Below are positions 5,508-63,352 of a DNA stretch of 64,000 nucleotides, piece after piece. A program made the translations under genes and the position numbers. The stretch is taken from contig SWDT01000227.1 in assembly GCA_009193035.1 (NCBI GenBank), positions 108,639 through 172,638 on the forward strand, given 5' to 3'. Under the pieces are notes generated by a model. That model made no database searches, was not told where the DNA came from, and was given only the letters and a program-made list of their open reading frames with translations. Source of the stretch: Halicephalobus mephisto (Eukaryota; Nematoda; Chromadorea; Rhabditida; Panagrolaimidae). Numbering within the stretch: position 1 is the stretch's first letter; each line of letters opens with the position of its first letter.

Positions 5508-7424
5508 ATGGGTAAACAACTTACTGCTGAACTATTAAATGATAAGGTTTGTAACTTTGCGTGCCTTCGTATCAAAAGTGCTTTTTAGATCGTTACGCTT
5601 AGAAAAGTTGTTAAGATAGCTGAACGTAATCTCGTTGAAAAGATTGACAAAAATCTAAAAACAACCAAAGATGTGACCGACGCTAAAAGAGTTAGAAGAG
5701 CCGGTAGAATGAAGGAAGAACGGGCCTTCATCACGGAAAAGAAGGTCGATGCTGATGAGGTTGCGAAGTTTGCTCTTCTGAACACAAAGTCATTGGTAGA
5801 ATTGAATATTCAACCAAATACAAATGTTCGTGATAGGGTGTTGTATAAGCTTGCTACGGAGAAGGTTTTACTCAACGCAATTGATAAGATTCGAGAGGAT
5901 TATCCTAACTGGTCCAAGGAAATTCCATTCCATCTTCAGCGTCTTGGTAAACGCTCTCATGCTGAAAAGACGAGTGAGTTGGAAGACACTCTTGCAGCAA
6001 TTGGCAAGAAGAAAGCATCTGCTGATGATGGGCCAGCTGCGAAAAGAACCAAAGTTGTTGAACCGGAATCTGATGAAGAGGAGGAAAGTGAAGATGAGGA
6101 TATTGAGGTTGATGAAGCTGAGGATGAAGAAGCTGAAGACGAGGAAGATGAAGCTGAGGGGGAGGACGAAGATGAGGATGAAGAGGAGGTTGCTCCGCAT
6201 GATGATAGTGCTCAGGTAGATTCTGATGCAGATGATCAAGAGGAACTTCCATATGCTCAACGCTTTGCGAAGGTTCAAAAGAAGAAGTTGGTCCCTGCTG
6301 AAGAGTAAGGTTTTACGTTTGATAATGCTGTATTTTTCGTTATTTGTAGTTCTGGTGACAAAAATACAAAGAGCAAGCCTGCTCTTGGACTCATCGACGA
6401 TATGGCTGAGGAGGAGGATATGGATGAGGATATGTTTGAAGACGCCATGTTCGGAGCTGAAGATGCAAGTGATGAAGATGAACTCGCAGAAGCAGAAGAT
6501 GACGAATCTGTTGAGTCAATGGAAGTTGATGAATTGGTCGAGAAGAAAAAGCCTATCGTTACGAAACCAGTGAAAGCGGTAGATACTCAAAAAGGAAAAA
6601 ATGTTCCCGCTAAAGGTGCAAAAGGTACCAAGAATGACTCAACTGCTTTTGTTAAGAAAGTCAAGTTGGATGATTTAGTGCGCGCTCAAGAAAAAATCCC
6701 AACGAAGAAAAAGGGTGGAAATACTCAAGATGCTAAAATGACGTCTGCACCACCAAAGGGTGAGAGGAAAGTCAAGAAATTCCTCGCCAAGGATAGTGAT
6801 GAGTCTGAAGAATCTGAAGAAGAACTCGCGATAGAGAAAAAACCCGTGCAAAAGAAGGGATTCTGGAAGGGCAAAGTTTCTGATGATGAAAGTGAAGAAG
6901 ACGAAGCTTCTGGTAAGAATCAAGAAAGTAGAGTGGACCGGAAAGGTGGTCGGAATGATTTCGAAAGAAACCGAGGACGCGGTGGATTCAACCAAGGTCG
7001 TGGAAGAGGTGGAGATAACAATCGAGGAAACTTCCGAGGACGCGGACGAGGTGGAGACAACTATAGAGGAAACTTCCGAGGACGTGGAAGTGGTGGAGAC
7101 AACTATAGAGGAAACTTCCGAGGACGTGGAGATCAAAGAGGAGGCTTCCGAGGACGTGGAAGCGGTGGAGATCATCACAGAGGAGGCTTCCGAGGACGTG
7201 GAGGCGACTCTGGTGGATTCCGCGGTCGTGGTGGAGGATTTCGTGGACATGGCGGATCTCCTGGAAGAGGAGGCGGAGGAAACAGAGGCAGAGGTAATCA
7301 GCAGCGTGGTGGTAGGTTCAATGCCAACGAAGAGAAGGTTCATCCTAGTTGGGCCGCGAGGCAGCAGCAGAAGGCTGGTCAAGGCGGCACCCCCCAAGGT
7401 AAAAGAATTGTCTTTGATGATTAG
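5508..7424 (+). CDS. BUD22/SRFBP1-family nucleolar protein with acidic and RGG tracts
   Basis: BUD22-type proteins act in pre-40S ribosome maturation in the nucleolus; the animal member is SRFBP1. Exons are 5508-5546, 5589-6304 and 6350-7424, giving 609 residues with continuous phase (introns of 42 and 45 nt). The N-terminal 150 residues are helical and basic (IVTLRKVVKIAERNL, DAKRVRRAGRMKEER, NVRDRVLYKLATEK), like the BUD22 N-terminus. Two acidic tracts follow (about 165-215 and 265-310), a lysine-rich middle, then an RGG/RGRG/FRGRG repeat region encoded by 6960-7310, and the family-typical C-terminal box HPSWAARQQQK...GKRIVFDD. The RGG array is typical of nucleolar RNA-binding proteins and is longer than in SRFBP1. 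Probably the second gene of the cks-1 operon. Convergent with the zinc-finger gene, which ends 200 bp downstream. Confidence 0.85.
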
Positions 7425-7625
7425 GTTATCTGTCTATTTGTTGTTGATTTTATGAAAATTTATTTGGAAAACTAAATTTTTGAAATTGCAAAATTTGACA
7501 GTGCGAGTTGAAAGACTCCATCTGAAGTCGAAAGAATTCTTTGAAAGAACATGGTTAGAAATCTGGCTCTGCTTTGTACAGCTTTCGAAGGAAGTGAATA
7601 CTTGAGAAGAGGAACTGAAAGACGC

Positions 7626-10600
7626 CTAGAGTTCGGCAGCCACGACGGTCGGAGACTTCTGCTCCTGTGCCAAGGCCACTTGACACGACTGGCTGCTTCT
7701 TAGTGGAATCGTCGGTAGTAGGCCCATTCTGAGCTTCTCGACGACTTCCTGAAGCTGAGGATCCCCCACATGGCGACTTTCAAAGTGTTCGATGAAATCA
7801 GCAAGTTCATGGCAGACGAATGAACACTTTGAGCATGAATATTTCTGTCGTTTTTCTGACAAGAGATCCTGAAATTGGTTCGTAGTAATAAATTGGAAGA
7901 AGAATTCACTTACAGTTTCGACAATACCATTGACAGCAACAAGATTTAGGGTTTGGTTTGTGGCAGGAAGATCCATGTGGTGGGTGTTTTCATGATAAGT
8001 GACGACATCTCGAGTATTGGCAGAGTAATTGCAGTAACGGCAAGTGAAGACGTTGTTTCTGTTCCCGTGGAATTCTTGGTGATTCATCAAGGCCACAATT
8101 GTATCACTACGGAAAGAACATTGGGTGCAGTAGTTCTGGAAAAGCAAAAACTAGTAATTTTCCGAAATTTGAAATTTTCAAAAATATTCCAAAAACAGGG
8201 CGAGTTGATTTCACAGATATTATCATTGTTTTGATTACTATTCGTTGCACTAAAATGCAAAAAAATAAAAAATTTTGCAGAATTAGTTCAACGCGAATTC
8301 TTAGAATTTTATAGAAGTTTCCAGAATTTAGGTAAAGGAAAACAGCGCGCGAGTGACAAAAGTGCGAGTCAATCTCGACAGCAAATCGCGGAATTTGCCA
8401 CTTTTTCCCATTTTAACAAGTCGCTCGTTCTCTGTGCGGAAATCCGAAAACAACAAAGATTCATATATCAATTTTTATAATTACATTGTTTTAAATAAAA
8501 ATTGATATATGAAAAAGCTTACCCATTTTCTTTCAATCTTTTTTCTAGCAAGGATTTTAGATTTTCTGCCATCCTTGTCATCGTTTGCAGCTCTTTTCAT
8601 TTGAGTCATTAATCGTTGTTGAAAATGTTGAACATGTTCCATTCTATGTTGCAAAAATCTATCTTGAAATGCAGTTCTGAAAGCACATTGTTGGCATTTG
8701 AATACATTTGTTGCATTAGCAGGAAGAGTTTCTCTTTCATGAAGACTTCCATTTCTTCTTCTTTGAGCAAGTTTTTTCCTCATTGTTGCTAGCATGGATT
8801 CTGGAAGTTGAGGAGCATGAACATTCATGTGAGAATACAAGGCATCAATATTGAAACAATTAAAACTACACATGGCACATTTTTGAGGACGATCACCTTC
8901 GTGCATTCTTGTGTGAAATTTCAGCATTTTGGAATCCAAACAAGTAAATGGACATTGTTTACATTCGTGAATTTTCTCATCATCGTCAATTTCGTTAGAA
9001 TTTCCAGAAGACGAAGTAGAAATTTGTCGTTTTCTTTTCGGTCTAATCGCGGCAGGAATAGGTGGAAGATAAATTTGAATGTTGTTTTTATATGGACCCG
9101 ATGACGTCACAGGTGATCTCGTTAACAATTGTCTTTTAAGTGGACTTAATTTTTTATTTCTCGTAATTGGTCCAGAAGCAGGAGAAGCCGTATTATTCCT
9201 ATTTCCCTGAGGAATTGGAGAAGCTCCAGACCAATCCATATCCATTTCAAAATCCTGTGCCAAAGCGATCCCAGGAACACTCGACGTTGTGCTTCTTTCT
9301 TCACTTTTATCTTTCTCACTCGACGACGATCCTTCTGGAGTTCTCGGTCCAGTTACTGTAGACGAAATATCCGTCGTCGTTGCAGAACAACTTTCAACAC
9401 TTGCTTGTTTATTTGTTTCCAATACAGTATTCGGTACAACATTACCTGCAACAATTCCATGAAGTGCCATATGATCCGTAAAACTTTGAATTGATCCAAC
9501 ACCAAATTTGCATATTTCACAATTAAACCTCCCAACTTTCTTATGTTTCTGAACATGATGCCATTGCTTCCCATACGAGTCCGCTCTATAGGGACAAGCA
9601 CTGCAGAACCATCCCCCTTCCGGAGCCGGTTCGTTCTGATGACTATCTATATGTTTCGGAAGAATATCGTCTCTATCCGTCGAAAACGAACATTTTGGAC
9701 ATTTATATTTCGCCGATTTCAAGTGATGTTTACTATGTTGATTCAACGTCGACGGATATCCAGCTTCAAAAGGACAATGAGCACATCTGTAGACCATCGA
9801 TCCATTAGATTTCATTATTTTCTTTCCAAGAACATTTTCTCTAACATCATTCCAAATTTTTTTGATTATTATTTCTTTAGGTAAAAAATCTGATTCTTTA
9901 TCTTTTTCTGGGAGTTTTTGAACCATAGGTTGATCTGGAGTCGGAGCAGTACTATCAGCAGCAATATGTCCCATTTCTTGTTCGTGTAACGCAGTGTGCG
10001 TTTTCAGAGCATTTAATCTCATTGTAGAATACGTACAATAAGGACATCTGAAGGTTCCTCTATCACTGTGCATTTTCTGATGAGCCTTCATGTCACACCC
10101 GTGTTTACTCCGGTAAGGACAATGAGGACAACGTAAACTCGCTTCCTGAAATTTCTTATTTTTAATTTTACTATTTTTAAAGTCTTCGAAAATAAAAAAC
10201 TTAAAAATTTGGAAATTTCCGAAACATTTAAGAATCTAGTAAAAAATCCCGGAATCTTTCAACGTTCAGTGAAATTTTTATAAAATTCTCTAATTTAGCA
10301 GACAATTCTAAAAACTAGAATCTTTCAAAATCTTAAGGACATTGAAAAAGTGATAAAAATTTCGAAATCATCTAAAATCAAAAATCCTAAAATTTCTAGA
10401 AAGTTCTCAAAATTCGTTCCGGGACAATTTCGTAACAAAAATTAATTTCTGGTTTTTATAATTAGAATTTCCGGAGATTTCTGAAATTACAAAAATCGAA
10501 AATTATCTAAAACTTTACAAAAAGTTTCAAAATAGTCCAAAAAATTTTTAATTTTCTAAAAAATTCACAATTTTACAATAAAAAATATTTCTTATTTTTA

Positions 10601-13600
10601 TAATTTGATTTTGTAAAAATTTCCGAACATTTTTAGGATTTTTCAAAATTAAAAAAATCGAAATTATTTAAAATCAAAAATTCTAAAATTTCTTAAAATT
10701 AATTTCAGGATAATTTTACAATAAAAAATATTTCTTATTTTTATAATTTGATTTTGTAAAAATTTCCGAACATTTTTAGGATTTTTCAAAATTAAAAAAA
10801 TCGAAATTATTTAAAATCAAAAATTCTAAAATTTCTTAAAATTAATTTCAGGATAATTTTACAACAAAAAATATTTTTTATTTTGTAATTCAATTTTGTA
10901 AAAATTTCCGGACTTTTTTTAGAATTTTTTGAAATTTTATAAAAATTTTCAAAATCACCTGAAATTAAATATCCTAAAATTTCCAGAATATTATGAAATT
11001 TCTGTCAATATAATTTCGTAACAAAAGTAATTTTTAATTTTTTTACAAAAGTATGATTAGACTTCGTTTTGCTGACGCCACAAAAAACAAAAAGAAAACT
11101 ATTGCAGCTGGACAGAGAAGCCAACAAAGACGCCCCGCACCAGGTTCTGGACCGGGACTGATTGTCCGACAACCCGATCGACGCACACGTGCTAATCAAA
11201 ATAATCAACCCAAAGTCAATAGTTTTCTATCTGAAAGGAAATGAAGGACAAATTTCTCGACAAATATGGCTTTGGAGAGAATTTTTGAGATCGGAAGTTG
11301 ATAACATTGCAATATTAAATGATAAATATTAAATTAATAAAAAACTAACCATTTTTTTCGCTGGAGAACTTGTTCTAGATAATCTTTCTCCATCTTCCTT
11401 GTTTGGGAAAACAGTCCCATCAATCTCCTCTTTCACTTTGATATTTCCATGAAGCTCGTTGTGCTTCGTCAGTGATCGCGGAGTCTTGCAAGAATAGGTG
11501 CATTGAGAACACTGAAAAACAGAAATAATTAAATAAAAACAAAGAAATATAAAAATATAAAAACAAAAAAATTAAAAAAATTAAAAAATTTTGATATAAA
11601 AATCCAAAAAATTTCCCGAGACGAATTTTCAAAACTAGATAATTTTAGATAATTTTCGATTTTTGTAATTTCGGAAATCTCCGGAAATTCTAGTTATAAA
11701 AACCAGAAATTAATTTTTGTTACGAAATTGTCCCGGAACGAATTTTGAGAACTTTCTAGAAATTTTAGGATTTTTGATTTTAGATAATTTCGAAATTTTT
11801 ATCATTTTTTCAATGTCCTTAAGATTTTGAAAGATTCTAGAATTTTTTGCAGGATTCCGAAGAACTTCAAAACCTCATAGATCCTGGGGAAATGTGGGAA
11901 GTTTTGTGGAATTTTAACGTCATATATGGAAAAATGAAAGTCGTCCTTACCTGAAGCTCCGCCTTGATTTTGTGTTTATTCTCGTGAGTGCTAAGTTTGG
12001 CCTGAGTAGTGGCTTTATAGGGACATAATTGGCAGCTAAAAGCCCCAATACCTCCAGCGACGAGTTCGCCGATCATCGATTGAGGTCCTAGAGCCGCTAC
12101 ATGTCTGATCAAATCCGACGGATCTTTATTCTCGGTTCTTAGGCGATTAAGACTAAAACTATAAATAAAAAAAAATCGATATATGAAACTTACAATTCAG
12201 GTCTTCCGAGTCTTTCTTGAACCATTTCGACGCAGTTCGGACGCTGTGATCGACGATTTGGATAATGCTTCAGAGTCACGTGGACCAGATACTGCCCGAT
12301 TGTCCCGAATTTCCTTCCGCAATGATTGCAGAATTTTCTTGGAGAAACAAATCTTTTGTCCTTGTTTACATCGTCTAGGATTGTCTGGATATGACTCCCA
12401 ACCTGAAGTGAAAAATTATTTATATTAAAATAATTGTAAAATCGGAAAATCACAACATAAAAAATAAAAGTGAATTTTACTACGAAATTTTCTCAACAAG
12501 AATTTTGAGAAATTTCTACACAGATGTCGGAGATAATTTATAATTGAAGTTAATCAAGTCTGCCTGATTGCGCTCAGTTACAAATGATTATGGAGCATCT
12601 GCGTAGTTTCCAAAACCTTGAAGAAAATCGCGTCGGGACTGTTTTGTGAAAAAGTTCATATATGACTTTTACGATACACGACTGATTTAGAAATTACACA
12701 AGATTACGAAATAACTACAGTCCAAAACTATACTTCCACAAGTGCTGCGAATCACTCGTAACTGAGTCCGCTTCATTGTGGTCAGTTCTGATTTCCAGCG
12801 CTTGTGTACATTGATAGTTTTATTCGATTTTTGAAAGTTAAAAAAGTTTACATGAGATTTTTAGAAATTTTTAAGGATTCTAGAAGCTTCTAAGATGTTC
12901 TAAAATATACCTAGTTTTGAAGCAATTATGGAAAATCCCAAAAATTTTATAATTCCACGAGATTCTGGAAAATTAGAAATTTCCATAAAACTTTCGACGA
13001 TTTCAAAAACTTCTGAGATTCTGAAGGATTCCAGAAATTTTTATGATTCTGAAGAATTTTCACAAGACTTCTGAAGCTTCTAGAAGATTTCCAAAAATTC
13101 CGGAATTTTCGAATTAGATTCTAGAAGTTTTTTTTTGAGATTCTGAAGGATTCCAAAATTCCTTAAAATTCTAGATTTCTTCGAAAACCGCAGAATCTTC
13201 GAATTGGATTCTAGAAGATTCTCAAGTTTTACGAAATCCTACTTTTTCGTAGAATTTTTAATTTTCGCAAAATCGAACAGAGCAAATAAACAAAAAAAAC
13301 AACTAGTCTCGTTCCCTCAGAAAAAGCTGGACAAACCTTGTCAGTCCGACGTCTCCTTAGACTTGAATTGCGGCTTTTTCGGTGTTTTTTCTGGTGACGT
13401 TCAAATCGGTTCTGTTGACGCGTTTTGAAGCCGCATTTTTTACAAAATAAAACAGGCTTTTCTGGCGGAAAGTTGAATTTGATAAAGTTTATTTTTAAAG
13501 GTTCGACATCCGGATCCATGGTTGAAACATATGAAATTTCTGAAGACTTGGGAAGATCCATCGACTTCGGTCCGTGAATCGATATATGATTAAGTAGGAA

Positions 13601-16263
13601 ATCCCTCGACGAAGCCCTGAAATCAGTTCATTTGGACCGTTATTCCACAAAAGTGCATTTTTTTTCGGTTTAGTGTTTTTGGAAGAAGAACAAAATCCAA
13701 TAAAACTATCAATGTACACAAGCGCTGGAAATCAGAACTGACCACAATGAAGCGGACTCAGTTACGAGTGATTCGCAGCACTTGTGGAAGTATAGTTTTG
13801 GACTGTAGTTATTTCGTAATCTTGTATAATTTCTAAATCAGTCGTGTGTCGTAAAAGTCATATATGAACTTTTTCACAAAAGTCCCGACGCGATTTTCTT
13901 CAAGGTTTTGGAAACTACGCAGATCTTTCACCATTATAACCACAGCTGTCAATTTTCGAATTGAACTTCGAATTCAAACCGAAAATCTAAGATTCGAAAA
14001 TCGACAGCTTTGGTTGTAACTGAGTGTAATCAAGCAGGCTCCATTGCGTTCAATAAGTGATTCGCGGCACCTGCGAAACGAAACCCATGATTTGACGAAG
14101 ACGTCTCAGCATGGATTTCTGAATTTTTAAAATTATTCTAAAACAATAATTGACTTCGACAACGATTTCTTTGACTTGCCATTTTTTCCACTTCATCAAA
14201 GTTCTGGAATTTTTCGGAAATTTTGATTCAGAAATACTTCAGAAAAGTTTCTTTGAGGTTTTTGAAGGCTTGAGAATTTTTTAAAAAAATCACAGAAGAA
14301 TCCAGAAGCTTCCATAGAATTCTAGAGTAATTTCAGAGGATTAGTTGAGATTCTGAGAAATTTCAGAAGCTTATTTGAGATTCTGGAAGAATCCTCAGAA
14401 GTTTATTCGAAGTTCCAAAGAGCTCCAGAAGCTTCTATAGGATTCCGAAGAGCTCCAGAAGCTTCTATAGGATTCTGAAGAGCTCCAGAAGCTTCTATCA
14501 AATTCTAGAAGAGCTTCAGAAACCTTTTTAAAATTCTGGAAGAACTCTAGAGGCCTTTATGAAGTCTCAGAAGAACTTCAGAAATTTATTTGAGATTCTG
14601 GAAGAGCTTCAGAAACTTCTATCAAGTCCCAGAAGAACTTCAGAAGCTTTCGTAAGATTCTAAATAATTCCAAAATTCTGCAACTTTAAAAGTTTCCACA
14701 AGATTCAGAAAACCCCCGGAAATTTCTGATTTGAAATGTCAGAACATGTCACTAGATTTCGACAGGTTATATAGAACCCGACTTCGGTTCTAGCCTGATA
14801 AAAATCATTCTCTAGTTTAATTGGCCCTTATCTGTCTTCAAAAGGTCCATCAATCAAAAATTTTCAACAATGGACTTACCGGAAAGAACATAGAGAACAT
14901 TGAAATCCGCAAGACCGAAAATGCCCCAATTTATGGGGGATTAATCTGGCAAATGTGTGAGTTTTGAACGGACACCAAGGACATGGAAAACTTCTTTTTG
15001 GTTTTTTTCCGTTATTTTTTAACATTCCATCAGATGAAAACGATGATTTTTTGTGATCAATTGATTTTCTTTTTCTCGTAGGAGTATGTTGTCCATGGAC
15101 TTTTTTGTGTTGTCGCATTGTTTTCCGATTTGTGCAAGAAAAATCGCAATTATGGCAAGGAAAAGTTTTATTTGCTCCATGTAGCTTCAGATGATTCGTC
15201 AATCCTACTCTGGATTCGAATTGGGCAGGACAACGGGGACAAGGAAACTCGTCCGAATACTGTAACTGTTAAAAATAAAAATTAAAAAAAGAAAATAAAT
15301 TTAAAAAAATAAATTAAAAAAATAAAATTAAAATAAAAATTAAAAATTAAAATTAAAATTAAAAAAATAAAATAAATTTAAAAAAATAAATTATTAAAAA
15401 AATAAAATAAATTTAAAAAAATAAAAATTAAAAAAATAAAATAAATTTTTAAAAATAAATTATTAAAAAAATAAAATAAATTTAAAAAAATAAATTATTA
15501 AAAATAAAAATTAAAAAAAGAAAAAATTAAAAAATAAATTATTAAAAAAATTCAATAATTTAAAAAAAATAAAGTAAATTTAAAAATAAAATTTTTTAAA
15601 AATAAAAAATAGATTATTTTCTAAATAATGGAAATTAATTTCTTTAATAATATAAAAATAAAATTTTTTATTAAAAATTGTTTTAAAATAAATCTTTAGA
15701 ACCTATTGAAAAGTTCAAAAATCTTTAATTTTTAAATTTTCTAAATTTTTAAATATTCGAAAATTTTTCATTTTGAAACTTTCGAAATAATTATTATTTA
15801 AAATCAAGAAAATTCTACTTACTCTGATTCCCGAAGGATCGGTGCACTCGACTCCGGCAGGAGTGACGTCGGAATCGTAGTCACTATCCAGGGAGTAGCT
15901 GAAGTCGTTGTAGACAGGGGCTTTCCTTTTCCGCTTCCCCAGACCCCCGACCACTAGGGATCGTTTCTGATTTTCCATCACGGATTCTTCAACAGGAGAA
16001 GATTCAGATTCTTCCAAATCCAAAACTACAGTTTCTTCTTGTTTTATCGGAAGATTCGGAACAATTACGACTTCGGAAACTTGAGCAATTGCAGGAGTTA
16101 CAGATGGAGAAATTCTTGTTAAATTAGGACTTGAGGCTGCTTGAACTACAGTAAGATGCTGAAGGGCAGGAGACCGGCTTCTTCCGTGGTGGATGGCAGC
16201 TACATCCAAATGAAATTTATTCCTTTTCGAACGCCTCAGAGCGTTGTCCGGATCTTCGGACAT
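7626..16263 (-). CDS. Large multi-C2H2 zinc-finger protein (about 20 fingers, REST/SPR-like)
   Basis: Predicted nuclear DNA-binding regulator. Nine exons on the minus strand join with continuous phase: 16263-15823, 15259-14880, 13616-13337, 12402-12194, 12152-11951, 11511-11350, 10145-8523, 8135-7914, 7868-7626 (1253 residues). Fingers run from FPCPRCPAQF in exon 2 to YSCSKCSFVC in exon 9; most have the short CxxC(P/S)(F/Y) knuckle typical of REST-like proteins. Finger 4 is split across exons 2/3, which supports that junction. Exon 1 (147 residues) has an acidic ESESSPVEES stretch, a basic GLGKRKRKAP patch and no finger. A Ser/Pro-rich spacer with KRKRQ lies in exon 7. The exon 2 acceptor has an alternative 6 nt upstream. 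The last intron (7913-7869) is 45 nt, in frame and stop-free. Size and finger number resemble nematode SPR-4-type REST-like proteins, but orthology is only a suggestion. An acceptor TTGTTCTAG precedes the ATG by four bases. Confidence 0.85.
10313..10515 (+). repeat. Inverted repeat pair 1, left arm (intron 6 of the zinc-finger gene)
   Basis: About 200 bp whose reverse complement occurs at 11635-11846. Matching cores include AATCTTAAGGACATTGAAAA against its complement near 11803-11826, and CGTTCCGGGACAATTTCGTA against 11731-11752. The arms enclose zinc-finger exon 6 (11511-11350). Confidence 0.8.
10571..10990. repeat. Tandem repeat, about 143 bp unit, 2.7 copies
   Basis: Units begin with TTTTACAATAAAAAATATTT near 10571 and 10713 and, diverged, near 10856. 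Copies 1 and 2 are almost identical. Located in intron 6 of the zinc-finger gene; noncoding. Confidence 0.8.
11053..11244 (+). other. Coding-like basic ORF inside an intron, unassigned
   Basis: A 63-residue frame on the strand opposite the zinc-finger gene, markedly richer in GC than the surrounding intron. It is basic and Q/R/N-rich (RSQQRRPAPGSGPG, RQPDRRTRANQNNQ). No signal peptide, domain or family was recognised, and no acceptor or promoter was obvious. It may be a small nested gene, part of a decayed transposon, or chance. The opposite strand has a TTTCCTTTCAG acceptor at its 3' edge but a poor frame. Confidence 0.25.
11635..11846 (-). repeat. Inverted repeat pair 1, right arm (intron 5 of the zinc-finger gene)
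   Basis: Reverse complement of 10313-10515 over about 200 bp with few mismatches. In the pre-mRNA the two arms can pair and loop out exon 6, a 162-nt in-frame exon encoding one finger. Confidence 0.8.
12598..12824 (+). repeat. Inverted repeat pair 2, left arm (intron 3 of the zinc-finger gene)
   Basis: About 227 bp, almost perfectly complementary to 13699-13924 (one extra G near 12640 and a few mismatches). Begins CTGCGTAGTTTCC and ends GATAGTTTTATT. Encloses exon 3 with its partner. Confidence 0.9.
13699..13924 (-). repeat. Inverted repeat pair 2, right arm (intron 2 of the zinc-finger gene)
   Basis: Begins AATAAAACTATCAATGTACA and ends GGAAACTACGCAGAT, the reverse complement of the left arm. 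Weaker homology to sequence left of the other arm resumes at 14014-14045 (GTAACTGAGTGTAATCAAGC), interrupted by the small palindrome at 13943-14012. Looks like a foldback-type element split by its spacer. Confidence 0.9.
13943..14012. repeat. Small palindrome nested in the foldback arm
   Basis: GCTGTCAATTTTCGAA (13945-13960) is answered by TTCGAAAATCGACAGC (13993-14008), enclosing about 32 bp. It interrupts the homology between the two arms of inverted repeat pair 2, so it was probably inserted later. Confidence 0.7.
14130..14700. repeat. Degenerate tandem repeat, about 30 bp unit
   Basis: Repeated GAAGAGCTCCAGAAGCTTCT blocks with ATAGGATTC-type spacers, clearest at 14410-14520, degenerating on both sides. 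Intron 2 of the zinc-finger gene. Confidence 0.75.
15262..15700. repeat. Low-complexity A/T tract in intron 1 of the zinc-finger gene
   Basis: Runs of AAAAAATAAA/TTAAAAA motifs with almost no G or C. Nothing else is visible. Confidence 0.9.
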
Positions 16264-18814
16264 GGATCTAGAACAATTGATTTTAAATTTGGAAAAATGC
16301 AAATTTTAAAAAAATCGAAAAAAAATAAAAATTCCAACATTTCGAAAATCCTACAGAAAGAAATCAGACATCTGGCAGGATCTCAGGAAGGAAATCTCAT
16401 GGAACATAAGGACATGGAAATCCCGCCAAATCCGATTTCGTCGAATTCGGTAAGGATGATGAATTGTAAATTTTTAAAAATTCCATAGATTTATAAGTAA
16501 GGTACTTTGTAAAATCCAATAAGGAAATCTCGCTAAAGGCAACAAAAAATAAATCCCGCGGAATCTTGTAAGAAACTCCACCCAACCTAATAAAAGAAAA
16601 CATTTTGGGATCTTGTGGAGATTACAGCTTACCAAACCCGTTAGGATGAAATCCCGTCAAAAACAGTAAAAGACGATGTACTACAAAATCCAATGAGGAG
16701 GGAATATTGTGGAATCGTATGTGGAAGAAATCTCATCTAACCCGATAGAGGAAATATTACAGAATCCATAGGTAAAAAATCTGACTAATTTGTAGAGGAT
16801 GATATGGTATTCAACTTGATAGGGATGCAACTTTGCCAAATACAGTAGGAGGGGATATTGTGGAAGAAATCTCATCTAACTCGATAAAGATGAAATATTA
16901 CAGAATCCATAGGTAAAAAATCTGAGCAATTTGTGGAGGATGATATGGTATTCAACTTGATAGGGATGAAAATTTGCCAAATACAGTAGGAGGGGATATT
17001 GTGGAAGAAATCTCATCTAACTCGATAAAGACGGAATATTACAGAATCTATAAATAAAAACTCCCTAATCCGTGAGGAATGATGTTATCCACATTCATGG
17101 GATGCAACTTTGCCAAATACAATGAGGATATCTCAAGGAATTCGACGAAAAGTAAATCCCGCGGAATTTTAAACGAGAAATTTCACCTCATTCTATAAAG
17201 GATAAAATATTGTGGAATATTACAGGGATGATATGTTATCCAACTTGTTGGGGACACAATTTCGCCAAATCCGGTGGGGGAGGAAATCTCGCGCAATCCA
17301 ATAGGGAGGAAATCAACACGTCTGCTCGCCGGTGGCGACGCGACGCACGCGATCGATCGATCACCTCTTTCTGCATTCTTCTTTAATTTGTTTTGTGTGC
17401 TTCTGGAGCAGCTTCCCGAGACATCTCGATCCATCCAGAATCAACATCCGGCCAAGGGAAATTCCAAAAAATCGTATAAAACAAGAAATTGATCATAGTT
17501 CACGAACTGCCACTTTTTTCTATTTTTAATTTTTTGGTTTTTTTTCAAAGGGAAATATTTAGAAAAGTATATAAATGAAGAGATTAAGATTAAGTGGGAT
17601 TAAAAATATTAAAATTACAGCTGATTGGAGGAAGAATAACCAAAACGCAACAAAAAACAATAATATACAAAGACAAGAGAGAGGAACTTCAAGCAACGAA
17701 GCAGTCACGGGTGGGGCGGACGGACGGACCTAGACTGCGCTCCGGACCCACTGTGCGTCCCCCCACGATCGATATTGAGTCAGCCTCACAGCTGTGCAGC
17801 GGCTGAACTTTTAGTCCTTTCAAATAAAGTGAATGTATGTCTTTCAGGTCTCCCAGAAAACGGGGATCGAATCGGGACAAATATAACCACTTTGATCAAA
17901 ATCCCTTAAAAAACAACTGTTTTAAATACATAAAGTAATTTATCGATTTTATTTGTAATTTAGTTTAAAATACAACAGCTGAGTTCCATCTATATTGACC
18001 ATTGTTGATTCTTTCGATGACGACTAACCAGATCCGCCCCCCACGGGGAACGAGGCGCACCAGACGGACGAAAGCGGGGGCTTAGAGTTGGCTCGGGACC
18101 AAGTCTAGTCGCTCGAAACGGCCAAAGAGGGAATTCCATCGACTGTTTAAAAAACCAAACTCCCCGATCAAACTATATCGAAATTAAACAAAAATTTCAA
18201 AGAATTTTAACAAATAAAAATTTAGAAAATATATAAGTTTAAAAATATATATCAAATTTAAACTTTATATATGAAAGTTATAAAATATGAAATTTTCGAA
18301 AATTTCAGAAATATATATTAAATTTTTAAAAACTGAATTACCTTCCAGAAAATCCTTAAAAATTAGAATTTCTTAGAATTCGATGTAAATTTTCAAAGAT
18401 TTTCGAAAATTTTCGAAAATTTCAGAAATATGTATTAAATTTTTAAAAATTCGATTATATTCTTCAAAATTTTGAAAATTTGAGAAATATTTATAAAATA
18501 CTTAAAAATTCGATTATATTCTGGAAAATTCGAAAATTTGAGAAATATGTATAAAATTCTTAAAAATTCGATTATATTCTGGAAAATTCGAAAATTTGAG
18601 AAATATATATTAAATTTTTAAAAATTCGATTATATTCTGGAAAATCCGAAAATTTCCAAAATTCTCAATTTTTTCAGAAGCATTTACTAGATTCCGGAAG
18701 ACTTCAGAATCCTCTACGAAATTTTTAACTACTTTAAAAATTTACTATTGTACTAATTTTAAAAATAAAAATTCCGTTTATTTTCGAATTAAAAACACTA
18801 CTGCTCCACGGTGT
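16264..18814. other. Intergenic: zinc-finger gene upstream region and hydrolase 3' flank
   Basis: No supported gene. A tandem repeat occupies 16690-17120. Three patches of unusually high GC stand out: 17310-17470 (with two GATCGATC motifs), 17700-17815 and 18030-18140. They may be promoter or noncoding first-exon material of the zinc-finger gene; no convincing ORF, tRNA or rRNA was found in them. AATAAA on the minus strand at 18782-18777, 33 bp past the hydrolase stop, is its likely poly(A) signal. 18200-18720 is AT-rich with short diverged repeats (AAAATTTGAGAAATAT). Confidence 0.6.
16690..17120. repeat. Tandem repeat, about 140 bp unit, 3 copies
   Basis: GAAATCTCATCTAAC recurs near 16727, 16866 and 17007. 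Units share GATGATATGGTATTCAACTT and GCCAAATACAGTAGGAGGGG. Relatives of the TTACAGAATCC element continue to about 17240. Confidence 0.8.
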
Positions 18815-27302: not shown

Positions 27303-30300
27303 ATGGTCTCGCTTGGATTGTTGGCGATTTTGTCGTTGAGTTCGTTTGTTTCTTGTTCGGTTATCCACCTGGATGAGGAGCTTTGTTCCTTCAAATCCCC
27401 CGGGTACTCCCTCCAATGGGCCTACGAACCTCACAGTAGAAATGTCGTCTTCATCCTGAAGCAAAAAAATAATAAAACAAATTTTTGGACAGGAGTCGGC
27501 TTCGGGGATCGTAAAAAGGTAAATTTTATTTTTAAAAATTATTAAATTACAACTGTTCTCAGAAATATTTATGTTTTTTAAGATTTCTATGATCAAAGTT
27601 CTTTGGTCGAGGATAATCATAGCTACACAAAAAGAAACATAACTTTAGGTTCAATATTAAATAAAAATCGTCATTATTACTTGTAATTTTCGTCGCAAAT
27701 ACCAAGTATTCACGGAAAATGTGACAATATATATAAATTTGTCACATTTCGTAATTGTTACTGATCTAAAAGTTACTTTGTGTAAAGTCGGAAATTTATC
27801 AGCAAAAAGTTGATTCTTTTTTAATTAATTATAATATACAAAAAAAACATAACTTTAGGTTCAATATTAAATATAAATCGTTATTATTATTTGTAATTTT
27901 CGTCGCAAATACCAAATATTCACGGAAAATGTGACAATATATATAAATTTGTCACATTTCGTAATTGTTACTGATCTAAAAGTTACTTTGTGTAAAGTCG
28001 GAAATTTATCAGCAAAAAGTTGATTCTTTTTTAATTAATTATAATATACAAAAAGAAACATAATTTTAGGTTCACTATCAAATATAAATCGTTATTATTA
28101 CTTGTAATTTTCGTCACAAATACCAAATATATGTGAAAAATGTGACGATTGTTACTAATCCAAAAGTTACTTTTTTGTGTGTGAATATCCATTTTTATTA
28201 AAACTTGAATTTTTCGTTTTCAAACAAAATTAAAAAATTAAAAAATTTTTATTTAAATTAATAGTCCAAATTCGAATTTCGTTTAAAAACAAAAAATTAA
28301 TTTAATTAACTTTTTTAAATTAATTTATATAATTTTTTAAAACAAAAAATTAAATCCTGATCATTAATGTTGATAAAACGAAGAACAGGGATCTGTGGGG
28401 ATTAAGAGGATTTTTTAAGTCAATTAGATGTTAGAAACTTGTTCATTTTCCGCTTTTTGCTTTTCAAAAAGACAGGTCTGGAGACAACTACGGACCGTCA
28501 AAATTAATTCTAAAAAAACAAATTTTTTAAAATCAAAAAAAATAAATTTGTTTAAAATAAAAAAAACAAATTTTTTAAAATCAAAAAAATTATTTTTTAA
28601 AATCAAAAAAATTATTTTTTAAAATCATAAAAAATAAATTTTTAAAGATAAAAAAAAACAAATTTTTTAAAATCAAAAAAAATAAATTTTTTTAAAATCA
28701 TAAAAAATAATTTTTTAAATTAAAAAAAATAAATTTTTAAAAATCTAAAAAATAATTTTTTTAAAATCAAAAACTCAAACTAATTTGTACTTTGTAACCT
28801 GCAAATGGATTAGTCAGATTCTACCGTATACTTTTAAAGGACAATTTTCGAAAATAAGGAAATTCAATAAAAGTACGGAATTTCGTAATTACACTTTAAA
28901 ATTCGTCAAAAAATTTTTGAAACAAACTAGAATTAATTTTGTAATTTATCAAATATCTATTCTGAATTCATTATTAAATTTTAATAAACAATTTCAAAAA
29001 TAAAAATTTAAAAATTTCTTTCAAAAATAATTTTTGATTTAATATATAATAAATTTCATAATTTATCAAATATCTATTTTGAATTTATTACTAATTTTAA
29101 TAAATAATTTCGAAAAATAATTTTTGATTTAATAATTTTTTAATAGACAATTTTAAAAAAAAGAGAATTAAAATTCTTTAGATTTTTTAAAAATTTCGAA
29201 TAAATTTAAAATTAGTTAAAAATATTTTAATTTATAAAAATTTTTAAATTACAAATTAAAAAAAATTAAAGTTAATTAAAAATATTTTTAATTTTTTTTA
29301 AATTTAAATTTTTATAAATTTAAAATTAGTTAAAAATATTTTAATTTTTGGTTTTTTTAAATTTAAAATTAATTAAAAATATTTTTGATTTTTTTTAAAT
29401 TTAAATTTTTATAAACTTAAAATTAATTAAAAGTATTTTTAATTTTTGGTTTTTTTTAATTTAAAATTAATTAAAAGTATTTTTAATTTTTGGTTTTTAT
29501 AGGAATTTGTGGATTTTATCGGTATTTTTCTGAAAAATGGACAGATCGGAATTGCGGACACGTACATCGATCCTTCTGAAGGCTCCCTCGTTCCGGACAA
29601 ATTCACAAATGTTCAAAGTATTGCTTTCGACTACAGTAATGGGACTTTGACGGCTAAATTTGCGAGATCGATAGACAATCCGGACGAAGAACACGATCAT
29701 TCTTTGACCGGATGTCAGATTCTGAATTTCGCCGTCAACGGTGGCTCCATTTCTCGAGTCGGGATTTCTCCGGATTTCGATGAAATATCAGAAAGGAAAA
29801 TCTGCAATATTGACGAAAATTGTCTTGTTGATTTGAAGAATTCTGGAGAATCCCAAAATAAATCAATTAAAAAAAAAGAAAATCCAGAATTTTTACATTC
29901 CGTCGACATCAGCGGCACCGGTGATCCTTGTAGTTTTGCCGGAGTCGGGTATACTGTAAACTGGACCTACAACCCTGAAACCGAACAAGTGGACTTCACG
30001 ATGAAACATCCAGTAAAATCCGGAAAATGGTGGAGTGCCGTCGGCATCGGAGACACAATGGCAGTAAGTTTTTTAAATCCAAAAAAATTTAAAAAATAAA
30101 ATAAAAAAAATAAAATTTTAAAAAATAAAATAAAAGAAATTAAATTTTAAAAAATAAAATCAAACAAAAATTTAAATTTAATTTAAAAAAAATTAAATTT
30201 TTCAAAAAAATTAATTTCATAAAAAATTAATTTTCAAAAAAATTAATTTAAAAAAAAAATTAATTTTAAAAATTTAGTTTTAAAAAAAAATTAACTTTAA

Positions 30301-40710: not shown

Positions 40711-40822
40711 GATAATATACAATATTGAAGACAACCTGGCTGTTCTTTTTACATATGTTCGTCTTGGGCCGGTTCCAATCGAGACTTACTCAGATGACCC
40801 AGACGAGGACCGTAGAGCATAC

Positions 40823-41441
40823 ACACAAAAAGTAACTTTCAATTCTGTAACAATTGCGAAATGTGACAAATTTATAACAATCGTCACATTTTTCACATAT
40901 ATTTGGTATTTGTGACGAAAATTACAAGTAATAATGACGATTTATATTTAATATTGAACCTAAAATTGTGTTTCTTTTTGTATATTATAATTAATTAAAA
41001 AAGAGTTAACTTTTTGCTGATTAATTTCCAACTTTACACAAAAAAGTAATTTTCGACTCGATAACAATTGCGAAATGTGACAAAAGTGTAACATAATCGT
41101 TACATTTTTCGTGAATATTTGGTATTTGCGACGAAAATGTAACATAATAGTGACAATTTGTACTTAATATTGAACCTAAAGTTACACTTTTTGTGTGCTG
41201 ATACAGTTAATCTGAGATGTCTAAACTCAGTAGAAGCGATCCTAAGCTAGTTACTCGGTGTTCAATTTTTTTGTTTTATATACAAAAAGTGTAACTTTAG
41301 GTTCAATATCAAATATAAATCGTCACTATTATTTGTAATTTTCGTCACAAATACCAAATATTCACGAAAAATGTGACGATTGTTATAAATTTGTCACATT
41401 TCGTAATTGTTACAAAATTGAAAGTTATGTTTTTTGCGTGT
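40823..41441. repeat. Three MITE bodies of the ACACAAAAAGTAACTT family
   Basis: Bodies at about 40823-40985, 41035-41199 and 41279-41441. The first two are joined by the same roughly 50 bp linker as in the DOMON intron array, in opposite orientation to it; the third is inverted relative to the second. Shared core: ATTTTTCxxxxATATTTGGTATTTGxGACGAAAAT. Confidence 0.88.
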
Positions 41442-42026
41442 AACTACGACTATAGGATAACCGTGACTTAAAAACGCTAGATAACCACTGGATGTGAACA
41501 ATACGAAATTAACTATATTTATTAACTTATTTTTGACTTAGAAAATAATCAGTAAAAATTAAAATTTCAAACTAAAAAAAATAAATAATTTTAAATTTAA
41601 AAAAAATAAATAATTTTAAATTAAAAAAAATAAATAATTTTAAATTTAAAAAAAATTAAAAGAAAATAAATAATTTTAAATTTAAAAATAAAAATCCCAA
41701 AGGTCATTTATAAATAGTTTAAAACGTGATTTTTGATTTAAAAATATTTTTTTCAAAAACTAGTTATAATCTGGTCCTAAAATTGGTCTTTATGTCCTGA
41801 AGGAGAATTATTTTTCTTTTTTCACACCGAATTGACTGTAGACTTGTTTTTGAATAAAAAATACTCAATCAGTAAATTTTGAAATTTTAATTTTAAGTTT
41901 AGAAAAATATTTCCGAAAATACAGTAATAAAAATAAAAAACTAAATTTTTCTAAATATAGATTTTTAAAATTAAATTTTTTAAGAATATGTTTTTTAAAA
42001 AACATAAATTTTAAAAGTTATTTTTG

Positions 42027-57992: not shown

Positions 57993-60900
57993 ATGAATAC
58001 GGTAGTTTTTTCAATTTTTTGTTTTATTTATTTTTCGACTACTGTAGAACCTGTGAATATCATCAACGTGGGGATTCTGATCCCGAGTGATGCCGATCCC
58101 ACCCTCCATCGGGACTGCGGGATGTACAACTCCCTCGGGGCCATCCCCCTGGCCATAGATCGCATCGTCGAAGAACAACTGCTCGATAATTTCAATTTTA
58201 GGTAACTTTCAATTTCACTATTATTTAAAAAAATAAAAATTAAATTTCACTATTATTTAAAAAATAAAAATTAAATTTTAATATTATTAAAAAATTAAAA
58301 TTTAGTTTTAATATTATTAAAAAAAAATAAAACTTTAATTTCACTATTATTTAAAAAATTAAATTAAATTTTACTATTATTAAAAAAATTAAATTAAATT
58401 TCACTATTATTTAAAAAATAAAAATAAAATTTTAATATTATTTAAAAAAATAAAATTAAATTTCACTATTATTAAAAAAATAAAAATAAAATTTTAATAT
58501 TATTAAAAAAAATAAAAATTTTACTTTAATATTATTTAAAAAAAATTAAAACTTAATACTATTTAAAAAATTGAAAATTTAATTTTACAATTACGTTTGA
58601 AAAAAAATTTTGAACTTTTCAAATTTATGTAAATTAGAAATTTTTATTTTTAGTTTTATTTAAAAAATTGATAAATTTGGATTAAGATAATATTTTGTAA
58701 ATTTTATGTTGGAAATTGTTTTTTACTACAGTATGATTTTGTTATTTTTAGTTTCAAAATTTTCAATGACGAATGCGACGAAGCCTTTGCCGGAGGGTAT
58801 GCTGCCAATCTGTTCGAGGAGAAGACAGACGTCATCTTCGGTCCTGTCTGTAACGCTGGTTAGGATTTTTTTAATTTAAAATTTAAAATTTTTATTTTTT
58901 TTTTTTATTTTAAATTTAAATTTTTTATTTTTTATTTTAAATTTTTTATTTTTAGCTGCGATGATGGTGGGATCTCTTGGGAAATTCTACAACAGACCGG
59001 TGATGACTTGGGGTTTGGTTAACTCCTTCCAGTTGACGGATTTCGATAAGTACCCGACTGTTTCGACCGTCGTGGGGACCTCCAGAGCCCTCGGGCAAAC
59101 CCTCTTGGAAGTGATGAAACAGTACAATTGGAAACGATTCGCGTTACTGTACGCCACAAACGACCCGAGGAACCGCTGCAGCTACATCAGGAACGACATT
59201 GAAGCCGTTGTGAACGCCGACCCTGACATCTTCATCAGTTTCCAGAGGGCCATTGACACTACTACTCTTGAGAATTTGAAAAATGTCTTGACTACAGTAT
59301 CCACGAGGGCCAGAAGTAAGTGTGTTTGCCCTACCTCTACACAGTAATCAATTGCAGTAATCGTGAGCTGCTACGAGTTCGACGTGGACAGGAGGACTCA
59401 TCTCCTGGCTCTCAACGACCTCCAGATGAACACCGACGACTACGTCAACATCTTCGTCGAGTTGAGGGGTCTCGGCTTCGGCACCAGGTTCACCGCTGGC
59501 ACGGAATACGGTAACGTCCAGTAGTTTCGCGAACGAGGAGTTGTTTTTCGGGAAGCCACCAAGCCCCTCGAAGCTGGAGAACCCACCTCTAATCCTCGTG
59601 GAGACTGTTCTGAAGTTGCGCTTTCAGATGCCGTCTCGGGGACGGTCCCGATCTGGGTCCTCGGAGCCAGATACGAAGCCGACGGGAGGGACGCCGACGC
59701 CAAGGACGGGGCCAGGAACACCTTCTTCGTCGACTTCCAGACTGCCCTGGGCTCCGACAGCAGGGCCTTCGCCGGGGACGTGATGACCAGGGCTCAGTCC
59801 TGGCCGTTCCACTGCGGGGACTGCTCCGACACCCGCTTCGAGGCCTCCACCTACGCCAAGTACCTCCACGACTCCTTCTACCTCTACGCCCTGGGTCTGA
59901 ACAGAACCCTGGCTTCGGGGAACGACACCGGGGCACTCGCCAGAGGGGCGGAGATAGTGCTGAACACCCGGGGGAGCTTCAAGGGGGCCAGCGGGGTCGT
60001 GGCCATCGGCGTGAACGGCAGCAGAGACGCCACCTTCTTCCTCACGGGGTTGAGGGCGGACTTCAGGAGCCAGGTCTTCCTGACCATCGCCTTCGACGAC
60101 GGCGTCCCGACGGTGTATCCGAACTACTCGGATCCAGCGGCCACGGTATGGGAGATGAGGGGCGGCAAGGCGCCTTCCGACGTCCCTCTCTGTGGCTTCC
60201 AAGGGAACACTTGTCCTGTCAACTTCTGGGAGGCCTACTCTCCATACGTCTTCACTGCCATCGGTATCGTCATATTGCTGATGACTGGGGTTACCGTCTA
60301 CAGCCTCTAGTAAGTTCACCGCTCTTGGCCTTTACTGTACTCCTACGCAATTCGCTGGAAACTCTTCGAATTATCTCAGATCGAAGTATTTTGAAAATCG
60401 AGACCAGAAAAGTCCGGAATACTGTTCATTTTTAATTTTTATAATCATATGATTAAAGTTAATTTCTCTCTGTTTGCAGCTACAGACGAGAACAGATGGA
60501 GAAGCTGAATCGACTCTGGAAGGTGTCCTTCGTCGAGCTGGACAGACCCCAGAGGAGCAGGAGTGGATTCCACAGTGAACGGTCCCTGCAGTCGAAACAC
60601 TCAACTTCCACGAAGATGACCTTGGAGAGCATGTCGGAATCCAAGAACTACAGTTACTTTTACTTTCGACACGAGCCTGTGGTGGCGAGGAAATTCCAAA
60701 CAAAAGCTGTCCTCAACGACAAAGATTACGAAGAGCTCCGAAAGGTTTCTTTTCTAAAAATGTTTATGAAATGAACTAAAGGGCTTTAGATGACTCAGTT
60801 GGATGCTGACCTCGGATCCAGCGACCACGGTATGGGAGATGAGGGGCGGCAAGGCGCCTTCCGACGTCCCTCTCTGTGGCTTCCAAGGGAGCACTTGTCC

Positions 60901-63177
60901 TGTCAACTTCTGGGAGGCTTACACTGGATACATTGTCGGCGCCATCGTCATCGTCGTGCTGCTCATCGTTGCAGTTGCCGTTTATGCTCTCTAGTAAGTC
61001 CACACAACGTTTATCTGCACCAAAACCCCCAGAACCAAGTGCGCAATTTCGACACTGATGTCTGTAAATTCAGCATTTATTTTCCACTTTAAACAAATGT
61101 AGTCATGACAGTGACTTTCCTCTATTTGCAGCTACAGACGAGAACAGATGGAGAAGCTGAATCGACTCTGGAAGGTGTCCTTCGTCGAGCTGGACAGACC
61201 CCAGAGGAACAGGAGTGGATTCCACAGTGAACGGTCCCTGCAGTCGAAACACTCAACTTCCACGAAGATGACCTTGGAGAGTATGTCGGAATCCAAGAAC
61301 TACAGTTACTTTTACTTTCGACACGAGCCTGTGGCGGCGAGAAAGTTCCAAACAAAAGCTGTCCTCAACGACAAAGATTACGAAGAACTCCGAAAGGTTT
61401 CTTTTCTAAAAATGTTTATGAAATGAACTAAAGGGCTTTAGATGACTCAGTTGGATGCTGACAACTGCAACCGCTTCATTGGGTTGTGTCTTGATGGCCC
61501 CCAGGTCTTCACCATTTGGAAATACTGTAGTCGGGGATCATTGAAAGACGTCATTGCTAAAGGTTCTTACAACATGGACGCCTTCTTCGTCCTCTCCATC
61601 ATGAGGGACATCTCCGACGGCCTGAATTACATCCACTCCCAGAGCTTTCTTGAATTCCATGGCCGTCTGACCTCGAGGAACTGTGTAGTTGACGACAGAT
61701 GGATGGTCAAGTTGAGTGACTTCGGATGTAACAAATTCTATGCCAATGAGAAGAAGAGAGCCACTGGTATGAATTACATATAATTGAGGAACACACAGTT
61801 CTTTTAGATTACCTGTGGATGGCCCCCGAGCTCATAAGAGATGTCTTTTCTGTGGGAACCAGAGCCGGGGATGTCTACAGTTTCGCCGTCATCTCCAGCG
61901 AAGTCCTCACCGGAAAGCCCCCCTTCGACTACGAAAACCGACCGACCGGCGTTGATGGCAAGTTCAAATTCATTATTCCAAAAAGTATCCTTTGAATATT
62001 TCCAGAGTTACTGTACCTGATCAAGAAAGGAGGAGCAGTTCCGGTGAGACCAAGTCTGAATGATGTCGACATTCCTGATCTGAATCCAGCTGTCCTCCAT
62101 CTGATCCGGGACTGCTGGCAGGAGGACTCCGGAAGTAGACCAACCATCGCCCAAGTGAAGACGCTGATGAAATCAATGAGCGGGAAGAACCAGAATCTGA
62201 TGGACCACATCTTCAGCATGGTCGAGAGATATGCGGAGACCCTGGCCGAGGAGATAGCCGAGAGAACGAAGGAACTCGTGGAAGAGAAGAAGAGAAGCGA
62301 CGTCCTGCTCTACCGAATGCTCCCGAAGTCTGTTTTGTTAGTTAATAAATTCAGTAATGATCATTTCAGACAAGTGGCTGACAGCCTGAAGGTGGGCAGA
62401 TCCGTGGAGCCCGAGAACTTCGAGAGTGTGACTGTGTTTTTCTCCGATGTAGTCCAGTTCACTACTCTCGCCAGCAAATGCAGTCCTCTCCAAGTCGTCA
62501 GTCTGCTCAACGACCTGTACTCCTTGTTCGATGGGTACATCGAGTCCTACGATGTCTACAAGGTGGAGACCATCGGAGACGGCTACATGTGTGTCTCCGG
62601 TCTGCCCCACAGAAACGGAAACGGACACGCCAAGGAGATCGCCAATCTGGCTCTGGTCCTGGTGGAAGCAATCAAGTCCTTCAGAATCCCCCATTTGCCC
62701 TCTGAAAGAGTCAACATCAGAATCGGGGCCCACACCGGACCTTGTACCGCCGGGGTTGTGGGATTGACGATGCCGAGATATTGTCTCTTCGGAGACACGG
62801 TCAACACGGCCAGCAGAATGGAGAGCAACGGCAAACGTATGTCTTTAGTGTCGGTTTCCTAATTGATAACATTGGTATTTACAGCCGGAAAGATCCAGAT
62901 CTCGCCGGAGTTGAACAATCTTCTACACCTGTTGGGAGGGTTCATGACCGAGCCCAGAGGGGAGGTGATCATCAAAGGCAAAGGCGTGATGGAGACCTTC
63001 TGGCTGCTCTGCAGCACGGACACCAGCTTCCCTAGCGTCAGAAGCGCAGCTGCAGAAGACTATATGGACGGGATATGTTCGGAAAGAGCTGACGAGACCC
63101 GAGTGAAGAACACAAACTCGATGTATGAGGATTTCTTGAAGAACAAAGTCCACAATCACACACAAGAAAAAACGTAA
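57993..63177 (+). CDS. Receptor-type guanylyl cyclase (nematode gcy family)
   Basis: Single-pass receptor making cGMP, typically in sensory neurons. Exons: 57993-58201, 58752-58858, 58956-59315, 59358-59510, 59628-60309, 60480-60744, 61442-61766, 61808-61957, 62006-62327, 62370-62836, 62885-63177; continuous phase, 1110 residues. Signal peptide, ANF-receptor-like ectodomain (to about 480), TM YVFTAIGIVILLMTGVTVYSL, kinase-homology domain (RFIGLCLDGPQV, KYCSRGSLKDV; the catalytic HRD Asp is lost in GRLTSRNC, so a pseudokinase), coiled coil (AETLAEEIAERTKELVEEKK) and cyclase domain with FFSDVVQFT, KVETIGDGYM (Glu for guanine) and MPRYCLFGDTVNTASRMES (Cys for guanine). Intron 8 is GC-AG; intron 9 is a 42-nt stop-free intron. 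Exon 6 has a near-identical second copy (61132-61396) that fits the same phases. The last five codons and stop come from a MITE. The ectodomain exons are much richer in GC than the rest of the window. Which nematode gcy it matches is not decidable here. Confidence 0.93.
60811..61441 (+). pseudogene. Second copy of the cyclase TM and juxtamembrane exons
   Basis: The block 60128-60810 is repeated in tandem as 60811-61462, starting at CTCGGATCCAGCG. It brings a second version of the end of exon 5 with a different helix (YIVGAIVIVVLLIVAVAVYAL), a diverged intron, and exon 6' (61132-61396), which differs from exon 6 by two residues. The TM2 part starts mid-exon with no acceptor of its own, and the only upstream acceptor (ATGACTCAG at 60790) leads out of its frame. 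As written it cannot replace TM1, although exon 6' could be spliced directly from exon 5. It is a recent partial duplication, an alternative-exon system in the making, or an assembly join. Confidence 0.7.
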
Positions 63178-63314: not shown

Positions 63315-63352
63315 ACATCTTTGACTTTTTTAAACTAAACAAAATTTAATTT

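What the first reader, a model, noticed from the sequence alone, without database searches (positions are those of the whole stretch)
12598..13924. Zinc-finger exon 3 sits inside a near-perfect 226 bp inverted repeat
Arms 13699-13924 (upstream intron) and 12598-12824 (downstream intron) are almost fully complementary and enclose one exon of 280 nt. Complementary repeats in flanking introns are the known driver of back-splicing, so a circular RNA of exon 3 is predicted. The duplex is also a substrate for ADAR editing or Dicer. Because 280 is not a multiple of three, skipping exon 3 would shift the frame and remove the downstream fingers, so the hairpin could switch the protein on and off.
Basis: partly seen in the sequence, partly recalled or inferred. 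Interest (0 to 1): 0.8.

Follow-up and report, generated by a model that had tools for sequence, protein, structure and literature searches.

The report
Two zinc-finger exons bracketed by hairpins
In one worm gene, two separate coding exons each sit between near-perfect mirror-image intron sequences that should fold the RNA into long hairpins; in worms such pairs are known to help make RNA circles and skip exons, so this is a good but not fundamentally new test case.

Summary
Inverted arms 12597-12831 and 13692-13924 match at 230 of 235 positions and flank a 280-nt coding exon of a nematode multi-C2H2 zinc-finger gene (9 coding exons, 1255 aa, minus strand). In 262.6 kb scanned, only these two inverted pairs have arms >=150 nt, >=95% identity and a gap <=2 kb.

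The arms do not look like two recent insertions of a young element: their best-scoring other matches are 77% over 163 nt and 82% over about 80 nt. Of 15 local clusters of the first arm's family, 14 are same-orientation; only this one is inverted. Identity in pair 1 falls from 98% to 78% in a short co-linear flank, which suggests gene conversion.

Best reading: nematode-type reverse complementary matches that fold the pre-mRNA, promote some back-splicing and skipping of exons 3 and 6, and attract ADAR editing. No RNA evidence was available. An on/off switch through exon 3 is unsupported; exon 6 is the likelier isoform exon. New member of a known kind.

The parts
7626..16263 (-). coding span of a 1255-aa multi-C2H2 zinc-finger gene, 9 coding exons: 16263-15823, 15265-14880, 13616-13337, 12402-12194, 12152-11951, 11511-11350, 10145-8523, 8135-7914, 7868-7626
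   Evidence: open frame with AG/GT splice sites; last exons placed by tblastn of the metagenome homologue P0024; zf-C2H2 Pfam hits on an earlier 1121-aa model; nematode homologues
13692..13924 (-). upstream arm of inverted repeat 1, in intron 2; its near end lies 75 nt before exon 3
   Evidence: 230/235 complementary to 12597-12831
12597..12831 (-). downstream arm of inverted repeat 1, in intron 3; its near end lies 505 nt after exon 3
13337..13616 (-). exon 3, 280 nt, donor GTTTGT; carries most of finger 4 after its cysteines, and finger 5
   Evidence: homology
12543..12583 (-). outer, diverged continuation of the downstream arm (32/41 identical to 14014-14054)
   Evidence: directly precedes a block copy in an array on contig C55 (positions)
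14014..14054 (-). outer, diverged continuation of the upstream arm
13934..14019 (.). small palindrome (28-nt stems, 89% complementary, 30 nt between) between the 98% block and the diverged continuation, in the upstream arm only
   Evidence: pair I8; 78% match over part of it elsewhere in the genome, C260
11643..11847 (-). upstream arm of inverted repeat 2, in intron 5
   Evidence: 97% over 205 nt with 10310-10512
10310..10512 (-). downstream arm of inverted repeat 2, in intron 6, beside an array of related units
11350..11511 (-). exon 6, 162 nt, frame-neutral, one C2H2 finger, donor GTTAGT
10569..10936 (-). tandem array, period 143, 2.6 copies, related to the arms of inverted repeat 2
   Evidence: 73-76% matches of the arm to C163:119283-119408, 119426-119515 and 119577-119683, i.e. 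window 10645-11045

Best explanation
Each of two coding exons (3 and 6) of this zinc-finger gene is bracketed by intronic reverse complementary matches (235 and 205 nt, 98% and 97%). Shown: the sequence pairs, their place in the introns, and that pair 1 is the only inverted cluster among those found of its repeat family. Inferred: in the pre-mRNA each pair folds into a long hairpin that brings the exon's own donor and acceptor together. This gives low to moderate levels of single-exon circular RNA and of skipped linear RNA (truncated for exon 3, one finger shorter for exon 6), and makes the intron duplexes targets of ADAR and possibly Dicer. The arms of pair 1 look like two older inverted repeat copies of which 235 bp was recently homogenised by gene conversion (inferred from a short flank). 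For pair 2, conversion and a recent inverted duplication cannot be told apart. A selected regulatory role is not needed to explain any of this.
For: Arm identities and places, far above resampled controls. Each arm pairs with its partner in the fold of intron-exon-intron (231 of 235 and 197 of 203 bases), and shuffling one arm, three trials each, weakens the predicted fold by about 287-290 and 192-200 kcal/mol. Among all intron pairs, the two highest complementarity scores are introns 2/3 and 5/6 (487 and 449; next 399 within intron 6 and 295 between introns 1 and 6). Introns 2, 3 and 6 are long (1263, 934, 1204 nt) against a mean of 473 in the likely species (PMC6872716 passages); C. elegans circRNA introns are also longer than average and RCM-rich. 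The two bracketed exons are the only two of eight with donors other than GTAAG (Fisher p 0.036; noticed after the fact). ADAR and Dicer domains are encoded. Gene conversion: block 230/235 versus outer 32/41, Fisher p 1.8e-5; the outer segment directly precedes a block copy on contig C55.
Against: No RNA reads could be examined. Intron 2 may be spliced before the downstream arm is transcribed (785 nt lie between the exon 3 acceptor and that arm). Intronic inverted repeats are common in worms: about 25% of expressed C. elegans genes have one in an intron over 1 kb (PMC4282642 passage), so most need do nothing. No relative's intron DNA could be examined. Intron 6 is also strongly complementary to itself (399), which would compete. 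Intron 5 (439 nt) is shorter than the species mean. The fold control used mononucleotide shuffles, three per locus. The conversion argument rests on 41 flanking nt that the aligner selected; a genome search with the upstream arm's outer flank (13925-14100) found only itself and C260, not the other arm or the C55 array, and the downstream arm's outer flank has only 3 matches besides itself, against 56 beyond the two arms for the block.
Confidence: 0.6

Rival explanations
1. Neutral intronic repeats: two local inverted copies of repeat units, homogenised by chance conversion or recently duplicated, removed with the introns and without effect on splicing.
For: The arms belong to repeat families with at least 58 and 52 matches in the genome, the arms themselves included; this gene's introns hold many other repeats; intronic inverted repeats are common in C. 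elegans.
Against: Complementary matches in both introns around a circularised exon are the configuration shown by deletion in C. elegans to drive circles and skipping, even with matches of 7 and 13 nt.
Confidence: 0.27
2. Selected regulatory device: hairpins kept alive by gene conversion, tuning full-length versus shortened zinc-finger protein, with exon 6 as the in-frame isoform exon.
For: Two pairs in one gene and no other of that class in the 262.6 kb scanned; exon 6 is frame-neutral; non-GTAAG donors on exactly the bracketed exons.
Against: No conservation data; exon 3 skipping is destructive; conversion needs no selection; the donor pattern was noticed after the fact.
Confidence: 0.08
3. 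Assembly artefact in a heterozygous genome: one arm was misplaced or inverted during assembly.
For: The likely source assembly used Illumina contigs scaffolded with PacBio reads (PMC6872716 passages), and the species is heterozygous at 1.15% (PMC12354626 abstract).
Against: The arms differ from each other by substitutions and a gap and have different flanks, and the gene model is intact across both loci. Two separate pairs would both have to be wrong.
Confidence: 0.05

Closest known systems
Reverse complementary matches flanking circRNA exons in C. elegans (zip-2, Y20F4.4, arl-13, glr-2 and others; PMC8330042, abstract and sections 7-8)
   Same: Complementary stretches in both introns flanking the exon(s), long introns, pairing across the exon.
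   Different: Here the arms are 205-235 nt and near-perfect (zip-2 has 7 and 13 nt), two single exons of one gene are bracketed separately, and there is no RNA evidence.
Intronic dsRNA edited by ADAR in C. elegans (PMC4282642, passages)
   Same: Long intramolecular intron dsRNA expected to be promiscuously edited; an ADAR domain is encoded in this genome.
   Different: The passages I saw count inverted repeats within introns over 1 kb; here the arms lie in two different introns across an exon, and editing is untested.
Inverted repeat modules homogenised by gene conversion (C. elegans hsp16-1/hsp16-48 modules, reviewed in PMC3966223, passages)
   Same: Close inverted copies, near-identical inside a tract with diverged flanks.
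   Different: Non-coding intronic repeat units about 235 bp long, with a coding exon between them; conversion here is inferred from one short flank.

Membership tests
RCM-flanked circRNA-producing exon | reverse complementary sequence in both flanking introns | tested here: met
   230/235 (pair 1) and 97% over 205 nt (pair 2)
RCM-flanked circRNA-producing exon | flanking introns longer than average | tested here: met
   three of four flanking introns: 1263/934 nt around exon 3 and 1204 nt after exon 6 against a 473-nt mean in the likely species; intron 5, 439 nt, is below the mean
RCM-flanked circRNA-producing exon | back-spliced junction reads resistant to RNase R | not testable with these tools
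   no RNA reads on hand
RCM-flanked circRNA-producing exon | loss of the circle when one arm is deleted | not testable with these tools
   needs a bench experiment
ADAR-edited intronic dsRNA | long intramolecular duplex predicted | tested here: met
ADAR-edited intronic dsRNA | ADAR encoded in the genome | tested here: met
   PF02137 over cut-off, two stretches on contig C318; 0 of the tool's 14 control genomes
ADAR-edited intronic dsRNA | A-to-G clusters in RNA reads | not testable with these tools
   no reads on hand
foldback or MITE-type element with inverted arms | the inverted arrangement recurs at other genomic copies | tested here: not met
   of 15 clusters of pair 1 family matches within 2 kb, 14 are same-orientation and only this locus is inverted; one further opposite-orientation pair lies 5.9 kb apart on C77. 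Not tested in this way for pair 2
gene-converted inverted repeat | high identity ends abruptly inside homologous sequence | tested here: inconclusive
   pair 1 fits: 230/235 versus 32/41 outside, but on one side and 41 selected nt only, and one search did not link the upstream flank to the family; pair 2 has low-complexity flanks

The most novel reading that the evidence does not exclude
One transcription-factor-like gene carries two neighbouring, non-overlapping hairpin brackets, each kept near-perfect by gene conversion in an asexual lineage. Together they set the ratio of full-length protein, a form lacking one finger (exon 6 skipped) and circular RNAs of exons 3 and 6. The 162-nt exon 6 circle would have no stop in its native frame.
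Probability: 0.08. Interest if true: 0.65.

Novelty: new member of a known kind. Interest (0 to 1): 0.35.

Why it matters
Two matched natural cases in one gene, one frame-breaking and one frame-neutral, with long near-perfect arms, would let one ask how intron pairing divides a transcript between normal splicing, skipping and circles. They could also show whether gene conversion keeps such hairpins alive in asexual animals.

Tried and rejected
Foldback or MITE origin of pair 1: rejected, because other clusters of the family are same-orientation. Two recent independent insertions of a young element: judged unlikely, because the best-scoring other copies are 77% over 163 nt (pair 1) and 82% over 74-82 nt (pair 2); shorter matches reach 85% over 87 nt and 89% over 52 nt. 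Known structured RNA family in the arms or introns: no Rfam match at gathering score in 7000-17500. First gene model: the last exon (8431-8369) was wrong; homologue P0024 places exons 8 and 9 at 8135-7914 and 7868-7626, so the 1121-aa protein used for searches has a wrong last 20 residues and lacks the true C-terminus. One search's heading names introns 3 and 4; in the final numbering they are introns 2 and 3. Literature: a search for Halicephalobus with circular RNA listed one paper, on heat sensing in land plants (listing only).

Full report
Where this is. The window is the end of contig C163 of a 59.9-Mb genome in 331 contigs. The strongest named hits of the gene's protein are nematode proteins, led by Panagrellus redivivus at 46% identity over 74% of the query; weaker hits include mollusc, insect and vertebrate zinc-finger proteins. 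A metagenome protein matches exon 7 at 92%. The longest contig I saw, C55, has 2,546,343 bases. The published Halicephalobus mephisto assembly has a longest scaffold of 2,546 kb, 61.4 Mb in 880 scaffolds, GC 32.1% and a mean intron of 473 bp (PMC6872716, passages). I infer that the genome is H. mephisto, a parthenogenetic worm (PMC12354626 abstract); the size and contig number differ, as they would if short scaffolds were left out, and no tool names the species. It has matches to the ADAR deaminase domain (two stretches on C318) and the Dicer dimerisation domain (one on C19), with none in the tool's 14 control genomes.

The gene. On the minus strand there are nine coding exons, 16263 to 7626, encoding 1255 aa. 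Seventeen C2H2 motifs were counted by pattern in the first, 1121-aa model; I count three more by eye in the corrected last exons. The last two exons were placed by homologue P0024, which corrected my first model. Exon 3 (13616-13337) is 280 nt and exon 6 (11511-11350) is 162 nt. Leaving out exon 3 gives 284 aa; leaving out exon 6 gives 1201 aa in frame, one finger fewer.

The two inverted pairs. Pair 1: 12597-12831 with 13692-13924, 230/235, in introns 3 and 2. Pair 2: 10310-10512 with 11643-11847, 97% over 205 nt, in introns 6 and 5. Local alignment scores are 487 and 449.5, against maxima of 168.5 and 179 in 100 resampled pairs each. Among all intron pairs of the gene these are the two strongest complementary matches; intron 6 with itself follows at 399 and introns 1 and 6 at 295. 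Predicted folds of intron-exon-intron pair 231 of 235 and 197 of 203 arm bases with the partner arm. Shuffling the upstream arm, three trials each, changes the predicted energy from -941.5 to between -652 and -655, and from -570.0 to between -370 and -378 kcal/mol.

How rare. In 262.6 kb (the whole of contig C163, 172.6 kb, and nine other 10-kb stretches) I listed inverted pairs of at least 60 nt, 88% identity and gap up to 6 kb: six pairs, all on C163. Only pairs 1 and 2 combine at least 150 nt, at least 95% and a gap of at most 2 kb; the others are 437 nt at 93.6% (gap 5469), 189 nt at 92.1% (gap 5060), 168 nt at 88.1% (gap 292) and 115 nt at 98.3% (gap 4860).

Origin of pair 1. The first arm has 58 matches in the genome, the two arms included, and this is a lower bound (40 of 68 candidates were scored). 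The best-scoring other match is 77% over 163 nt; shorter ones reach 82% over 119 nt and 85% over 87 nt. The 58 fall into 39 clusters, 15 with more than one member; 14 of the 15 are all in one orientation, and only this locus is mixed. One further opposite-orientation pair, on C77, lies 5.9 kb apart. So the inverted layout is not a general property of the family. Outside the 98% block, on the side away from the exon, the arms continue with 32/41 identity (E 2e-5; Fisher p 1.8e-5 against 230/235). A small palindrome lies between block and continuation in the upstream arm only. On contig C55 the downstream arm's outer segment runs directly into a block copy (positions), and by eye L007 carries both in the same order, so the outer segment belongs to at least some units. 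This fits two old inverted copies whose inner 235 bp was recently copied from one to the other. It is not proof. The 41 nt were selected by the aligner, the outer segment has only 3 other genomic matches, and a search with the upstream arm's outer flank found only itself and part of the palindrome on C260.

Origin of pair 2. For the second arm there are 52 matches, the two arms included. The best-scoring other one is 82% over 74 bp of target; a shorter one is 89% over 52 nt, and related units in intron 6 match at 73-76%. Its flanks are too simple in sequence to tell conversion from recent inverted duplication. In C. elegans, conversion between close inverted copies and into introns has been reported (PMC3966223, passages).

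What it probably does. In C. elegans, removing one intronic reverse complementary match made circRNAs undetectable or very low in six of six chosen genes, and reduced skipped transcripts in Y20F4.4, arl-13 and zip-2, the last with matches of only 7 and 13 nt (PMC8330042, sections 7 and 8). By analogy, exons 3 and 6 here are good candidates for single-exon circles and skipping; this is inference. The donors of exactly these two exons are GTTTGT and GTTAGT, while the other six introns begin GTAAG (p 0.036, noticed after the fact). Against it: about 25% of expressed C. elegans genes carry an inverted repeat in an intron over 1 kb (PMC4282642, passage), so presence alone says little; intron 6 has strong self-complementarity that would compete; and no RNA was examined.

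Verdict. Observation confirmed and extended; interpretation partly supported; a new member of a known kind, with two matched cases in one gene as its special interest.

Noticed in passing
11030-11245: GC-richer stretch inside AT-rich intron 6, with translated fragments that by eye resemble those near 17600-17800 and 18000-18240 in the ORF list; possibly a dispersed repeat.
   Followed up: no
8462-8511: Intron 7 holds a short inverted pair, 16-nt arms at 8496-8511 and 8462-8477, seen by eye in the sequence.
   Followed up: no
6300-7430: Plus-strand coding-looking stretch with repeated units just beyond the 3' end of the gene (convergent neighbour), seen by eye.
   Followed up: no
59467-64000: Large direct repeats near the contig end (63356-64000 with 59467-60126, 93.5%; 60811-61462 with 60127-60810, 83%).
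   Followed up: no
27614-28154 and 40820-41442: A repeat family with copies in both orientations about 13 kb apart (85-88%), including an 88% inverted pair with a 292-nt gap at 40820-41442.
   Followed up: no
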